NCBI RefSeq assembly: GCF_019703305.1
Contig: NZ_AP024814.1
Location: 930,001 to 994,000 of the forward strand
DNA: 64,000 nucleotides
Reading direction: 5' to 3'
From: Helicobacter sp. NHP19-003
Lineage (GTDB): Bacteria; Campylobacterota; Campylobacteria; Campylobacterales; Helicobacteraceae
A model generated the notes under the pieces. It had not been told where the DNA came from, made no database searches, and saw only the letters and a list, made by a program, of their open reading frames with translations. The translations under genes and the position numbers were made by a program. Shown piece by piece: positions 27,474 to 43,599 of this stretch (within the stretch, counting starts at the first letter, position 1; every line of letters starts with the position of its first letter).

Positions 27474-30400
27474 TTAAAAATTGTAAACATAGTTAAAGAA
27501 CACCGAGATGTTGCGCTTATAGGTGATGTCTAGGCTATCTCCGTTAGTGCTTGTACCCCTGAAGTAGTAGTCTGTGCTCAAGGGGATACGCAAGCCGATT
27601 TCAAACCCGTTGTGCTTGCTGACATTGGTTCTAAAACCCACATTTAAGGGGATTTGAAAATAAGTTGTGTGCATCGCTGCATGCCCGCCATGGGCATTTA
27701 AATTTGCCATGTAGGCTTCATAATTGCTCGCCCCCTTGGCTAGCCAAGTCGAGCCGGTCAGCATCAAGCCCAAAAACACGCCCGAAGTGTATCTGCCATC
27801 CTTACTTTCATAGAAGTTGTAGAGCGCATCCACCCCCGCCCCATAGACAAAGTTGTCCACCGCCAGAGAATCGCTCATGTAAAAAGTGCCGTGTTGGTAG
27901 CTAAAGGTCCCGTAGTAGCGCACACCCCAACGCTTTTGCTTGCCAAAGAATTGTTTGTATCCCATTTGTGCGTTTACGCCGTACATGTTGCCGTTTTGGC
28001 TTTGGTTGAGGTTTTGGGTGATGAATTTTGGCGCACCGGCGGTGGGCTGGCGGCTGGCGTTTAAATACTGCTTCAAGTCGGCTTTAATGGTGTTGAGGTA
28101 GGCGAGCAGAATATTCAACTCTTTCACCGCCGCCCCGATGCTCTTAGCTACAGGGAGCGCATCAACCGCAAGGTTTAACTTAGGCAAATCGATTCGAGCT
28201 AAAAGCATGGCCGTTTGTGGAGGCAGTTTAGGGCTGATGAGCGGGGTGTCTGGGTTGAGATCGTCAAATAAGTTTTGGCGGGCGTTAGCCACTTCACCGA
28301 TGAGGTTATTTAGGCTCTCTTGCACCGCATAGAAGCTGATGTTGGGGTTGTCTAACACGGCGTTATAAAAGTGGTTGTAGTGCTCGATTAAGACCGCACT
28401 GATGTAGTTTTCTGACCCTTGCCCTAAATTCTGCCCCACGCTTTGTTGCATGCCCGCCATGAGATTAACGAGGGTTTGGGCAAGGTCCATGCCCTGCTCT
28501 TTGGCTTGGGCTTCCAACTCTGCTTGGACACTCTCCACGATTTGATTTTGGGTTTTGACATAGAGCTCCCACGCATTTTCTCTTTGCTCTGCGGGGTCTG
28601 TGGCATTGGATAGGATTTGTAGGGGACTGCTGTTTGTGGGGCTGGTGTCAGTGGGCGTTGGGTTGTAAATAGGCAGGGGAGGTGTCGGGTCGTTTGTGCT
28701 GGTTTTTGTACCGCTCACTTTAACATCGGGGCTTAGGGGTTGATCTGCCTTAGCATTGTGGCTAGCCACTTTGCCCGGATCGTTTGGCTGATTGTGGACA
28801 TTTGGTTGTGTGGGTGGTGGCGTTGGGGCGGGTTTAGGGGGCGTATTGGCGGTGGTCTTTAGGGCATTTTGATAACCGGTGAGGGCTTGTTCGATTTCCT
28901 TGATGAGTTGTTGGGCCTTAGCTAATTTTTGTTGGCTGCTGGTGGTGTTGCTTTGGGCCGTTGGGAGCATGGAGTTGGTGATAGCACTGTAGTCATCCAC
29001 CACATTTCTCAAGGCGTTGGCGGCGTTTTTGTAATTTTCAAAGGCCGTTTGCACGAGAGAATCGGCCCTGCTTTGGTTGGCCTTGGCTTGTTGCAGGGCT
29101 TGGGTGATGTCCTGTCCTGTTAGGGTCTTGATGTAATTTTGCAAATCTTGCATGGTTGTGTTTAGAGCGTTGCTGATGGTTGCGGGGAGGCTAGTGAAGT
29201 TTTTTGTGTCTGTGGCGGCGGTGTTGATGGCGGTTTGGGCAGTTTGGTATTGGGTGTAAACCTGTTGAATTGTTGAGGCCGCACTTGACATAATGCCCTC
29301 AATGTATGCAAGATTCTGTGTCCGGCTTTGCCCGCTCGATGGCCCACCAAATAATCCGCCAGATAGAATACTCTGTATTTGTAGTGGCAAAAATTTTAGA
29401 TAGCGCATTGCAGAACCATAAGAGTTTGCCGCTTGACCCAAAGCACCGCTGGGTTGGTCTAGAGCGTTGATTCTGTCCTGGGTCGTGTCTGTGGTCCTCT
29501 TAGCATCGATTGTGTTTAAAGCGTCTTGAACACCCTCTATGGCCTTAATGGTGTTGCTCAAGTCTGTGGCGGTGCTACCCGCACCGCTAGATGCATTGAT
29601 GGCCTGTATGTCTTTTAGGATCGTGCTGATGTTTTGTAGGGGGGTTAGGCTGCTAGTGAGTTTAGCGATGGTGTCGTTTAAAGCCTTGACATTGAAATGC
29701 GTTAAATCCGTATTGGCTTGTAAACTATTGGCGATGTTTTGCAAACCCGCCACATCTTTTTGGTTTGTTTGGTTGCCGGTGATGCCTTCAAGAGCCTTGA
29801 TGGCGCTGTTTAAGCAGGTATCGGCTGAGGCGCAAAGAGTCGAATCTACACCCTTAGTTTGCCCCGTTGCGTAGTTGTATGCCTGTGTGATTTCTTGGCT
29901 GATGTTCTTAATGCTGGTGTTGATCCCCTTAAGTGTAGAATTGTAGCCGTTGTACTGTTGTTGGTATTTTTGTAAAACCTCATTGATGCTTTGCACCGCG
30001 CTGGCTGCGCTGTTGGCCTCTGTATCCATTCCCTTTAGGTCTTTTAAATCTGCCACAATGTTGCCCACTTGTTTTAAAAGCCCCACTTGACTCGCCGTTT
30101 GTGCGGCTGCGACTTGTGCTTTTTCTAGGGCACTGCGGGCTACTTGGTAATTGCTGCCAACTTTCTTCAATAAGGCGGCAATGCCGACTGCGTTGACTAG
30201 GGCACTATTGACATTTATGCCCCACAGTGTGTCTGTAACACCTTTGAGGTCGTTTAAATTTGCAAGCGCTTTGGCTAAATCTCGTTGGGCCTGCGGGCTT
30301 AAATTTAGGGTTTGGGCATCTTGTTTAGCGGTGGCAGCGAGGTTGTCCAAGGCCTTTAGGGTGTCGTCCACACTTTTGACGGTGGACACCTTAGTCCACG

Positions 30401-31058
30401 CTCCATTTATGGGGTATAAATCCTCGAGAGCCTTCACTTGTTGATTGACTTTATTGTAGGTCTGTTCCAACTCTTGACTTGTGCTTGTTACATTTTTGGT
30501 GGTGGGTTGTAAAATGCCCTTGATGTCGTCTAGGGGTTGTTGGAGGTTTTGTTGCAGATTTTGTAGGGGTGCTGTGGGGTCGGGGGCTGGACTTGGGCTT
30601 AAGGCATTTTGCAAAGCGCTTTGCAAGTCTTTAAGGGCTTGAGGGTAGTTTTTAAGCGCATTGAACGCACTAGTGAAATCACCTTCTATCTGCGATGTTT
30701 GGACACCTCCATCTAGGCTGTCTGGAACTGTAGGTGTGCTGGTGTCAACTTGTGATAGTGCTTGGCCCAGGCCCTCTAAGCGGCTCTTAGTACTCCCAAA
30801 GTTTCCATCTAATGTCTCTAAGTCTTGCAAAATTTGATTCACACCCCAGCCTTGCGTGTTGCCTAAAAGGGCTTTAGCGATGCTTTGCGCACTCTCAGGG
30901 GTGCTTACAAACATGCCAAAGTTCACTTGCGCCTGTAGCACAGGTGTAGCCTTTAGAGGGCAAAGCGCAGAAGCGATCACAAGGCCTAACGGACAAGCAC
31001 GCTTGGTGCACCTTTTTAAGAGCGGTCTGGCTTTTTTAACAAAAACAGGTCTTTTCAT
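27474..31058 (-). CDS. Giant outer membrane protein: helical passenger plus Hop-type C-terminal barrel
   Basis: 1194 residues. The N-terminus is basic then hydrophobic (KRACPLGLVIASALCPLKA), an atypical signal. Residues about 50-740 are predicted helical and rich in A, L, Q, N, T with many DLQ/ALxNL heptads. About 760-850 is a Pro/Thr-rich linker. The last 170 residues match Hop barrels (MYGVNAQMGYKQFFGKQKRW, RWGVRYYGTFSYQHG, NVGFRTNVSKHNGFEIGLRIPL) and end in VFFNYVYNF. The ATG at 31058 has AAGGGG upstream. Size and layout recall the largest H. pylori Hop proteins (HopL-like), but orthology is not established. It follows a short Hop-like secreted ORF. Confidence 0.8.
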   Translation of the reverse strand: MKRPVFVKKARPLLKRCTKRACPLGLVIASALCPLKATPVLQAQVNFGMFVSTPESAQSIAKALLGNTQGWGVNQILQDLETLDGNFGSTKSRLEGLGQALSQVDTSTPTVPDSLDGGVQTSQIEGDFTSAFNALKNYPQALKDLQSALQNALSPSPAPDPTAPLQNLQQNLQQPLDDIKGILQPTTKNVTSTSQELEQTYNKVNQQVKALEDLYPINGAWTKVSTVKSVDDTLKALDNLAATAKQDAQTLNLSPQAQRDLAKALANLNDLKGVTDTLWGINVNSALVNAVGIAALLKKVGSNYQVARSALEKAQVAAAQTASQVGLLKQVGNIVADLKDLKGMDTEANSAASAVQSINEVLQKYQQQYNGYNSTLKGINTSIKNISQEITQAYNYATGQTKGVDSTLCASADTCLNSAIKALEGITGNQTNQKDVAGLQNIANSLQANTDLTHFNVKALNDTIAKLTSSLTPLQNISTILKDIQAINASSGAGSTATDLSNTIKAIEGVQDALNTIDAKRTTDTTQDRINALDQPSGALGQAANSYGSAMRYLKFLPLQIQSILSGGLFGGPSSGQSRTQNLAYIEGIMSSAASTIQQVYTQYQTAQTAINTAATDTKNFTSLPATISNALNTTMQDLQNYIKTLTGQDITQALQQAKANQSRADSLVQTAFENYKNAANALRNVVDDYSAITNSMLPTAQSNTTSSQQKLAKAQQLIKEIEQALTGYQNALKTTANTPPKPAPTPPPTQPNVHNQPNDPGKVASHNAKADQPLSPDVKVSGTKTSTNDPTPPLPIYNPTPTDTSPTNSSPLQILSNATDPAEQRENAWELYVKTQNQIVESVQAELEAQAKEQGMDLAQTLVNLMAGMQQSVGQNLGQGSENYISAVLIEHYNHFYNAVLDNPNISFYAVQESLNNLIGEVANARQNLFDDLNPDTPLISPKLPPQTAMLLARIDLPKLNLAVDALPVAKSIGAAVKELNILLAYLNTIKADLKQYLNASRQPTAGAPKFITQNLNQSQNGNMYGVNAQMGYKQFFGKQKRWGVRYYGTFSYQHGTFYMSDSLAVDNFVYGAGVDALYNFYESKDGRYTSGVFLGLMLTGSTWLAKGASNYEAYMANLNAHGGHAAMHTTYFQIPLNVGFRTNVSKHNGFEIGLRIPLSTDYYFRGTSTNGDSLDITYKRNISVFFNYVYNF

Positions 31059-31102: not shown

Positions 31103-31321
31103 TTATTTATCCGGTTGCGGGGGCACTAAAATGGGCTTTGTTGCCTCAATGCCCTTGAGTGGATTTAGTTGCCAAAGTGGGTTTGTGGGCACCTGTTGGC
31201 TATCCTTAGTTGCCTTTGTCATGTTGGAGTATTGAAACCCCGCTTCTCCATAAACTCCGCTGTTTTCAGCTAAAAGCAACGGAGCGGCTAAGAGAGGTAA
31301 AAACATTGAATGTAAGCGCAC
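31103..31321 (-). CDS. Short secreted Hop N-terminus-like protein
   Basis: 72 residues from a GTG at 31321 with GAGGAG five bases upstream. It has a signal peptide (MFLPLLAAPLLLAENSG) and then GVYGEAGFQYSNMTKATKDS, the usual start of a mature Hop protein, but it stops after a Pro-rich tail (KPILVPPQPDK). It sits 44 bases ahead of the giant barrel gene, so the two may be a split adhesin gene, or this may be a small exported protein. Its leader contains a C8 tract (31383-31390 as G on plus) and the 13-bp repeat array. Confidence 0.55.
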   Translation of the reverse strand: MRLHSMFLPLLAAPLLLAENSGVYGEAGFQYSNMTKATKDSQQVPTNPLWQLNPLKGIEATKPILVPPQPDK

Positions 31322-31423
31322 AGGATCTCCTCGCTGTTGGATTTAAGGCAAGCGAAGAGCAACTAGACATAGGGGGGCTTGCGGGGGGGGCTTTACGCCC
31401 CTTAAGCAAACCCCCTATCACCC

Positions 31424-31748
31424 AAGGGATAAACCCAAGGGATAAACCCAAGGGATAAACCCAAGGGATAAACCCAAGGGATAAACCCAAGGGATAAACC
31501 CAAGGGATAAACCCAAGGGATAAACCCAAGGGATAAACCCAAGGGATAAACCCAAGGGATAAACCCAAGGGATAAACCCAAGGGATAAACCCAAGGGATA
31601 AACCCAAGGGATAAACCCAAGGGATAAACCCAAGGGATAAACCCAAGGGATAAACCCAAGGGATAAACCCAAGGGATAAACCCAAGGGATAAACCCAAGG
31701 GATAAACCCAAGGGATAAACCCAAGGGATAAACCCAAGGGATAAACCC
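31424..31748. repeat. 25 perfect tandem copies of a 13-bp repeat
   Basis: The unit AAGGGATAAACCC is repeated 25 times without a mismatch (325 bp). Because 13 is not a multiple of three, every frame is open on the minus strand and three units encode GLSLGFIPWVYPL. The array lies between a minus-strand TATAAT (31836-31841) and the start of the Hop-like secreted ORF, so it would be transcribed as leader. Perfect identity means recent expansion or active slippage. Confidence 0.97.
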
Positions 31749-31835
31749 AAATGAGGACAAGTGGCCGAGCTCTCAACGCCACGCCATACATTTTTTTCAT
31801 TTTAGCACAAAAAACTAATTTAATGCTTTACATAA

Positions 31836-31922: not shown

Positions 31923-33248
31923 TTGCGTAAAATCTTTGGCATGATTGTGGGTAGTTATGTACTTTTAGCCCTTGTGGGGGCACTTGTGCTGGATTTAGCC
32001 CCCATGCACACTAGACCCATCGCCTTTTTGGATTTGTTTTTCACCGCCACTTCTGCGGTGTGCCTCACGGGCCTCATCACGGCAAACCCCGCGACAGATT
32101 TTAGTGTCTATGGGCAGGCGGTGTTGTTGGGGCTGATACAAGCGGGGGGGTTTGGCTACATGGGGCTGGCGGGGTTTTTGTTCTTGCTTTTGGGGAAGAA
32201 AATGGGCTTTAAGGGGCGTTTAATGCTTAAAGAGTCGCTGGATTACCCAAACATGCAGGGCGTGATCTTGTACCTTAAAAAAATCTTGATTTTCACTTTG
32301 GCGATTGAGGGCGTGGGGGCGGTGCTTCTTAGCATGTGTTTTGCACTGCATTTACCCTTCAAGCAAGCCCTTTGGGCGGGGCTCTTCCATGCCATTTCTG
32401 CCTTCAACAATGCCGGCTTTAGCATTTTTGCCTCTAATTTAGTGGACTATCAAAACAACGCTCCCATTAACCTCATCGTTTGCGCCCTCATCATTTTTGG
32501 GGGTTTGGGCTTTTTGGTCTTAAGCGAGTGCTACAACCACCGCAAAAACACCCGTTTGAGTGTACATACGCGCATCGTATTGTGGGCGACTTTGGGTTTT
32601 CTTTTGCTTGGCGTGGCGGTGGTCTTGCTCTTTGAGTGGGACAACCCTAAGAGCATAGGGGGGTTGCGTGCGTGGGCGAAAGTGATGGCAGCGTTTTTTA
32701 TCTCTGTCAATTTACGCACAGCGGGCTTTAACACCATTGATATGGCTAGTTTGCACGATGAGAGTTTGTTTTTCTCTTCTTTGCTCATGGTGATCGGGGC
32801 GGCACCGGGCAGCACAGCTGGGGGGATTAAAATCACCACTTTAACCATCCTTTTGGTTTACGCCTACCACGCCCTAAAGGGGCAGGAAGTCGTGTTGTTT
32901 AAGCGCACTATCCCCCAAAGTGCGGTGAAAAAATCCTTTTTGATTTTCATTGTCGCCATGTTTTACATTGTCATTTCTGCCATGTTTTTAAGCGCAACTG
33001 AGGACCGCCAAAACAAATTCTTTTTGCATTTGTTCTTTGAGATTTGTTCGGCGTTTGGCACAGTGGGGGTGAGCACAGGCAATGGGGGCGATCTCTCATT
33101 GGTGGCGCAGTTTGGCAGCTTTGGGAAGTTGTATTTAATGCTTTTAATGTTTATGGGGCGGGTGGGCGTGTTGGTCTTTAGCATGGCGTTAGTGGGTAAG
33201 AGCAAGACCCACCATGTCCGTTACCCTGAAGAAGAGGTGGTTTTATAA
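31923..33248 (+). CDS. Ktr/Trk-type potassium channel-like transporter subunit
   Basis: Inner-membrane K+ uptake subunit of the TrkH/KtrB superfamily, 441 residues and about ten hydrophobic helices in a four-fold MPM repeat. Selectivity-filter-like loops are visible: SAVCLTGLITANPATDF (first), SAFNNAGFSIF (second), NLRTAGFNTIDM (third) and SAFGTVGVSTGNGGDLS (fourth). The length fits KtrB. The start is the TTG at 31923 or the ATG at 31941; the ribosome site is poor for both. A KtrA-type RCK protein follows. As far as I recall H. pylori has no Ktr system, so this marks a difference from it. Confidence 0.85.
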   Translation: MRKIFGMIVGSYVLLALVGALVLDLAPMHTRPIAFLDLFFTATSAVCLTGLITANPATDFSVYGQAVLLGLIQAGGFGYMGLAGFLFLLLGKKMGFKGRLMLKESLDYPNMQGVILYLKKILIFTLAIEGVGAVLLSMCFALHLPFKQALWAGLFHAISAFNNAGFSIFASNLVDYQNNAPINLIVCALIIFGGLGFLVLSECYNHRKNTRLSVHTRIVLWATLGFLLLGVAVVLLFEWDNPKSIGGLRAWAKVMAAFFISVNLRTAGFNTIDMASLHDESLFFSSLLMVIGAAPGSTAGGIKITTLTILLVYAYHALKGQEVVLFKRTIPQSAVKKSFLIFIVAMFYIVISAMFLSATEDRQNKFFLHLFFEICSAFGTVGVSTGNGGDLSLVAQFGSFGKLYLMLLMFMGRVGVLVFSMALVGKSKTHHVRYPEEEVVL

Positions 33249-43476: not shown

Positions 43477-43599
43477 TTAGTCTTGGTTGTTGCTGTTATT
43501 GCTGTTGTTGCTGTTATTGCTATTGTTGCGGTTGCTGCTGTTGCTGTTATTGCTGTTGTTGCTGTTCCTGCTGTTGCTGCTGTTGCTGCTGTTGCTCAT
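43477..43599 (-). CDS. 40-residue protein made almost only of Asn and Ser
   Basis: From an ATG at 43599, with AAGGAG six bases upstream, the frame encodes Met, 37 residues drawn only from Ser, Asn and two Arg, then Gln-Asp and a TAA at 43477. Codons alternate AGC/AAC/AAT, so it arose by trinucleotide repeat expansion. A promoter-like TATAGT (43674-43679) and a leader hairpin precede it. Gastric Helicobacter also make His/Gln-rich metal-storage mini-proteins (Hpn), but this one has no His or Cys. Function unknown; expression is plausible from the strong ribosome site. Confidence 0.6.
   Translation of the reverse strand: MSNSSNSSNSRNSNNSNNSNSSNRNNSNNSNNSNNSNNQD

What the first reader, a model, noticed from the sequence alone, without database searches (positions are those of the whole stretch)
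31424..31748. Twenty-five perfect 13-bp tandem repeats in the leader of a Hop-like gene
325 bp of AAGGGATAAACCC without a mismatch, between a minus-strand promoter and the secreted Hop-like ORF. All three minus frames are open and encode a GLSLGFIPWVYPL repeat. Copy-number change would alter leader length and any reading frame; a C8 tract further down adds a second slippery site. A plausible expression switch for surface proteins.
Basis: partly seen in the sequence, partly recalled or inferred. Interest (0 to 1): 0.66.

Follow-up and report, generated by a model that had tools for sequence, protein, structure and literature searches.

The report
Variable tandem repeat before surface-protein operon
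In a stomach Helicobacter, a 13-letter DNA unit repeated 25 times without error lies in the predicted untranslated leader of a surface-protein operon; relatives carry the same unit there in 1 to 7 copies, so it looks like a length-variable element that may tune, rather than switch on and off, how much surface protein is made.

Summary
The array is real and exact: 25 perfect copies of AAGGGATAAACCC at 31424-31748. It lies 51 nt downstream of an extended -10 box and about 100 nt upstream of a two-gene operon: a 72-aa secreted protein with a Hop-type N-terminal motif, then a 1194-aa HP_OMP protein. The genome is a gastric Helicobacter close to H. heilmannii. Across 34 Helicobacter genomes the unit was found in tandem only in leaders of such operons: 25 and 7 full copies in this genome, 4 in strain NHP21-005, 2 in H. 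heilmannii ASB1, and a 12-bp relative x3 in one more species. The trkH-flanked ortholog in ASB1 has one copy. In four paralogous leaders the unit is the 3' arm of a hairpin, so arrays probably arose by amplifying that arm; a second hairpin follows the repeats in the leaders compared. MutS1 and MutL were not found, and perfect identity implies recent turnover. The frame-switch idea is not supported: the small gene's frame has a TGA right after the array, and the ORF through it is not conserved. Best reading: a 5'-leader VNTR, like the Haemophilus hmw repeats, making graded expression differences. Variability is supported between loci and species, untested between isolates; the expression effect is inferred. 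Neutral slippage is the main rival.

The parts
31424..31748 (-). Tandem array, 25 perfect copies of GGGTTTATCCCTT (coding strand), in the predicted 5' leader
31799..31807 (-). Extended -10 box TGCTAAAAT, predicted promoter; start of transcription inferred near 31792
   Evidence: similar TGCTA(G/A)(A/G)(A/G)T boxes precede the homologous leaders. Inferred, no transcript data
31368..31419 (-). Hairpin H2 directly downstream of the array (-31.7 kcal/mol, z -5.0); counterparts follow the repeats in five homologous leaders
31383..31390 (-).
31418..31420 (-). TGA in the reading frame of the small gene, between array and start codon; excludes fusion by copy-number change
31327..31331 (-). Shine-Dalgarno-like AGGAG
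   Evidence: sequence
31103..31321 (-). Small gene, 72 aa, GTG start, signal peptide then ENSGVYGEAGFQYSNMTKAT, a Hop-type N-terminal motif
27474..31058 (-). Large gene, 1194 aa, C-terminal HP_OMP domain (residues 1030-1194)
31923..33248 (+). Divergent trkH, the neighbour that anchors orthology of this locus in two other species

Best explanation
A variable-number tandem repeat in the 5' untranslated leader of a two-gene Hop-type outer-membrane-protein operon. The unit is a partly self-complementary 13-mer that probably began as the 3' arm of a leader hairpin and was amplified. Copies are gained and lost by slipped-strand mispairing in a genus without MutS1/MutL repair, so cells and lineages differ in leader length in 13-nt steps. 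Because the array is transcribed (inferred) and lies between promoter and start codon, length should change the yield of the operon in a graded way through RNA structure, stability or elongation, not through a reading frame. Shown: the array, its context, the range of copy numbers at homologous leaders, the conserved downstream hairpin, the missing mismatch-repair families. Inferred: transcription of the array, slippage within a population, effect on expression.
For: Same unit at 25 and 7 copies in this genome, 4 in G010, 2 in G012, 1 at the trkH-anchored ortholog in G012; a 12-bp relative, GGGTTTATCCTA, 3.8 copies, in G029, again in such a leader. All tandem occurrences found in 34 genomes are in leaders of these operons. 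The -10-like box precedes the repeats wherever readable. H1 in four leaders uses the repeat as its 3' arm (z -3.3 to -4.2) and H2 follows the repeats (z about -5 in four of the five folded). No MutS_I or MutL_C family in the genome, with 11 of 14 control genomes ringing. No substitution in 325 bp although trkH differs by 14% from H. heilmannii, so the array has turned over recently. Precedent: hmw1/hmw2 7-bp repeats, where more repeats give less transcript (PMC2424069) and P2 transcripts carry the repeats in the 5' UTR (PMC8262952).
Against: One genome per species was available, so variation between isolates is not shown, and copy numbers in draft assemblies may be collapsed (gaps abut the repeats in G002 and G012). 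No transcript data. Folding of six natural leaders shows no trend of ribosome-site accessibility with copy number (unpaired 0.22 at 25 copies; 0.16 to 0.39 at 1 to 7), so a simple occlusion mechanism is not supported. Most small-gene operons in the genus have no array.
Confidence: 0.5

Rival explanations
1. Neutral expansion: a slippage-prone, hairpin-forming stretch of leader expands and contracts without consequence, tolerated because the leader is long and translation starts well downstream.
For: Explains all sequence observations, including the absence of MutS1/MutL, perfect identity, and the lack of a trend in predicted start-site accessibility. Several homologous leaders do without an array.
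Against: Tandem copies were found nowhere else in the searched genomes than in leaders of this one operon type, and a related 12-bp unit appears in the same position in another species. This is also expected if only these leaders carry the seed hairpin, so it is weak.
Confidence: 0.36
2. The array is coding: a leader ORF starting at ATG 31791/31800 is translated through GLSLGFIPWVYPL repeats, and copy number mod 3 decides where it ends relative to the small gene's start.
For: All three minus frames are open; one frame runs past the small gene's start to 31266; the ATG at 31791 lies about at the predicted transcription start.
Against: No such ORF in the ortholog or paralogs, whose candidate upstream ORFs end before the repeats (by inspection). 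No family match. The small gene's own frame is closed by TGA 31420-31418.
Confidence: 0.05
3. The repeats act as an array of binding sites, at DNA level or for an RNA partner such as a RepG-like small RNA that pairs with G-rich leader repeats.
For: Each unit offers a GGG and a CCC block; in H. pylori RepG pairs with a G-repeat in the tlpB leader and repeat length sets the output (PMC8295292).
Against: No Rfam match in the leader, no partner identified, and RepG targets a homopolymeric G run, not a 13-mer.
Confidence: 0.09

Closest known systems
hmw1A/hmw2A 7-bp repeats of nontypeable Haemophilus influenzae (PMC2424069, PMC8262952)
   Same: Tandem repeats of more than 5 nt, upstream of a surface protein, two paralogous loci in one genome with different copy numbers, repeats present in the 5' UTR of P2 transcripts, graded output.
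   Different: Unit of 7 nt, not self-complementary in this way, placed between two promoters; expression effect shown there, not here.
tlpB-hp0102 leader G-repeat regulated by RepG in H. pylori (PMC8295292)
   Same: Length-variable repeat in a leader of a Helicobacter operon, graded effect.
   Different: Homopolymer, regulated by a small RNA; no such RNA identified here.
sabA promoter T-tract rheostat in H. pylori (PMC4081817)
   Same: Intergenic repeat that tunes a Hop-family outer membrane protein in Helicobacter by slippage.
   Different: Homopolymer next to the -35 element that acts on RNA polymerase binding; here the repeats are downstream of the -10 box.
CT-tract signal-peptide switches of Hop genes (babB, hopZ, oipA)
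   Same: Contingency loci of the same protein family; PMC4081817 lists such intragenic CT tracts.
   Different: Coding, on/off by frame; here non-coding.

Membership tests
Leader/promoter VNTR contingency locus (hmw type) | Perfect or near-perfect tandem array upstream of a surface-protein gene | tested here: met
Leader/promoter VNTR contingency locus (hmw type) | Copy number differs between homologous loci | tested here: met
   25, 7, 4, 2, 1 copies; between species and paralogs only
Leader/promoter VNTR contingency locus (hmw type) | Copy number differs between isolates or clones of one strain | not testable with these tools
   one genome per species is held
Leader/promoter VNTR contingency locus (hmw type) | Repeats are transcribed in the 5' UTR | tested here: inconclusive
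   -10-like box upstream of the repeats in the leaders where it can be read; no RNA data
Leader/promoter VNTR contingency locus (hmw type) | Copy number changes expression | not testable with these tools
   needs reporter or RNA measurement
Translational (frame) phase-variation switch | Copy number moves a gene in or out of frame | tested here: not met
   TGA 31420-31418 in the small gene's frame after the array; array lies outside the genes
Helicobacter Hop-type outer membrane protein operon (downstream genes) | HP_OMP C-terminal domain | tested here: met
   PF01856, E=2.1e-41
RepG-type leader repeat | Homopolymeric G-repeat paired by RepG small RNA | tested here: not met
   repeat is a 13-mer with GGG blocks only; no RNA family match

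The most novel reading that the evidence does not exclude
A contingency element made by amplifying one arm of a leader hairpin: each added 13-nt unit is another copy of the arm, so the leader becomes a self-pairing RNA rod of variable length that sets the output of split Hop operons (several per genome) in 13-nt steps, a multi-locus rheostat not described for Helicobacter.
Probability: 0.3. Interest if true: 0.66.

Novelty: new variant of a known kind. Interest (0 to 1): 0.46.

Why it matters
Non-pylori gastric helicobacters are reported to lack all known H. pylori adhesins (PMC6194013), and how they vary their surface is little known. A leader repeat shared by several surface-protein operons, with copy numbers from 1 to 25, would be a compact and easily typed source of graded surface variation, and a strain-typing marker even if it has no function. 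The hairpin-arm origin gives a concrete idea of how a long-unit leader repeat can be born.

Tried and rejected
Peptide encoded by the array: no conserved ORF, no family match. Frame switch into the small gene: closed by TGA. Known structured RNA: no Rfam match at E<=1. Start-site occlusion by the array: no trend across six natural leaders. H2 as a genus-wide leader motif: model R1 finds only the known leaders clearly above background (32.6 bits and more; the background begins at 26.5), and the window's own H2 scores in the background (16.8 bits), its support being position and stability rather than score. Terminator in the leader: hits not above the number in shuffles. The array as a general dispersed repeat: tandem copies occur nowhere else in 34 genomes. 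A paper search for a described Helicobacter leader VNTR gave nothing relevant, in an open-licence library only. AlphaFold2 model of the C-terminal domain: mean pLDDT 41, not used as evidence.

Full report
Observation. The finding is exact. The coding-strand unit GGGTTTATCCCTT is repeated 25 times without a mismatch between 31748 and 31424, and TRF scores the array 662 against 145 for the next array in the window. Downstream on the minus strand come a 72-aa ORF with a GTG start at 31321, an AGGAG six nucleotides before it, and a 1194-aa ORF from ATG 31058 with a C-terminal HP_OMP domain (E=2.1e-41). Upstream lies an extended -10 box, TGCTAAAAT, 31807-31799, and then trkH in the opposite direction.

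Where it is. The genome (G000, 1.61 Mb, 5 contigs) is a gastric Helicobacter; trkH is 86% identical in DNA to H. heilmannii ASB1. The species name is not given by the tools; H. ailurogastricus, described in the literature as the closest relative of H. heilmannii (title cited), is a guess.

Relatives. A tandem pair of the unit occurs in only 3 of 34 genomes of the genus, and a looser pattern adds one more. Every tandem occurrence lies in the leader of a small gene like the one in the window. Runs of whole 13-mers are: 25 in the window; 7 at G000:C1:1205573; 4 in G010 (Helicobacter sp. NHP21-005); 2 in G012 (H. heilmannii ASB1, near 483280); about 1, with a one-base insertion, in G012 near 479415; and 1 at G012 near 262756 (TRF, which counts partial units, gives 25.5, 8.1, 5.2, 3.3 and 2.1 for the first five). 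The last is the true ortholog of the window locus: it is flanked by trkH (90% identical protein) and followed by a full-length relative of the large gene (64%). So at the same locus one species has 25 copies and its near relative one. In G002 the ortholog has an assembly gap exactly where the repeats begin, a warning that draft assemblies can hide or collapse copies. In G029 another leader carries 3.8 copies of a 12-bp unit, GGGTTTATCCTA, sharing the first 10 bases.

Origin of the unit. In four leaders (G010, two in G012, G000:C1:1205573) the repeats are preceded by GAGCCUUAAGGGAU or near it, and the first AUCCCUUGGGUUU, which is the 13-mer in another phase, is the 3' arm of a hairpin with it (-15.4 to -16.6 kcal/mol; z -3.3 to -4.2). 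The simplest reading is that arrays arose by tandem duplication of that arm. The window leader lacks this 5' arm (z 0.1), so there the units can only pair with each other; the predicted fold is one long rod of GGG/CCC pairs. A second hairpin follows directly after the repeats in the leaders compared: z -4.7 to -5.3 in four of the five folded, -1.9 in the ortholog at G012 262756. Model R1, built from three closely similar copies, recovers the leaders at 32.6 bits and more, against a background starting at 26.5; the window's own copy has diverged to 16.8 bits and is recognised by place and stability, not by score. The number of independent sequences is too small for a covariation test.

Reading frames. 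All three frames are open through the array, as expected from a stop-free 13-mer. But the frame of the small gene meets TGA at 31420-31418, right after the array, and the other two frames end at 31402 and 31266. No copy number can join an upstream frame to the small gene. In the ortholog and the paralogs the candidate upstream ORFs stop before the repeats (by inspection). A coding switch is therefore unlikely. One frame overlaps the small gene's start, so an effect of upstream translation cannot be excluded completely.

Mutability. MutS_I and MutL_C were not found in the genome, with 11 of 14 control genomes positive. Absence of mismatch repair mainly affects short units; for a 13-mer slippage or recombination does not need its absence, so this is supportive but not specific. 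With no substitution in 325 bp, the 95% upper bound for divergence within the array is about 0.9%, against 14% at trkH between this genome and H. heilmannii: the array has been renewed recently.

Mechanism. The best-supported explanation is a leader VNTR with graded output. It is closest to hmw1A/hmw2A of Haemophilus, where two paralogous loci in a strain carry different numbers of 7-bp repeats, more repeats generally mean less transcript, and P2 transcripts carry the repeats in the 5' UTR (PMC2424069; PMC8262952). In Helicobacter itself, the sabA T-tract (PMC4081817) and the tlpB G-repeat (PMC8295292) show that non-coding repeats tune surface genes in a graded way. I folded six natural leaders and found no relation between copy number and exposure of the ribosome-binding site, so if there is an effect it is more likely on RNA elongation, stability or protein/RNA binding. 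Nothing here shows an effect at all; neutral slippage explains the sequences nearly as well and is given 0.36.

Verdict. Real, unusual in size and perfection, shared with several paralogous surface-protein leaders, strongly different in copy number between species, and not a frame switch. A new variant of a known kind, with function unproven. The library of papers is open-licence only, so an earlier description cannot be excluded.

Noticed in passing
window 31103-31321 and 27474-31058; L055, L056, L011: The Hop N-terminal motif (ENSGxYGEVGFQYSNMTKAT) is encoded by its own small secreted gene, followed by a separate secreted HP_OMP gene, in several loci and species. In H. pylori horA is likewise annotated as two ORFs (HP0078/HP0079), put down to a premature stop (PMC5727368). 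A low-confidence model of the C-terminal domain shows seven strands (pLDDT 41), so the small protein supplying a missing strand is an open idea only.
   Followed up: partly
L064 (G000:C1:1160500-1168500), hit near 1164696: A divergent pair of small genes; one has a run of CT dinucleotides in its signal-peptide region, the classical Hop phase-variation arrangement.
   Followed up: no
L011 (G000:C1:1201000-1211000): In the second array-bearing operon of this genome the large gene's first frame ends after 348 aa and the HP_OMP part continues in another frame, with no long homopolymer at the junction: a pseudogene, an assembly error or two genes.
   Followed up: partly
L057 near 4047; L009 3341-3688: Runs of N abut the repeats in the leaders of G002 and of H. 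heilmannii ASB1, so copy numbers there may be underestimated.
   Followed up: no
window 43486-43596: An imperfect 9/33-bp GTTGTTGCT-type repeat array, score up to 145.
   Followed up: no
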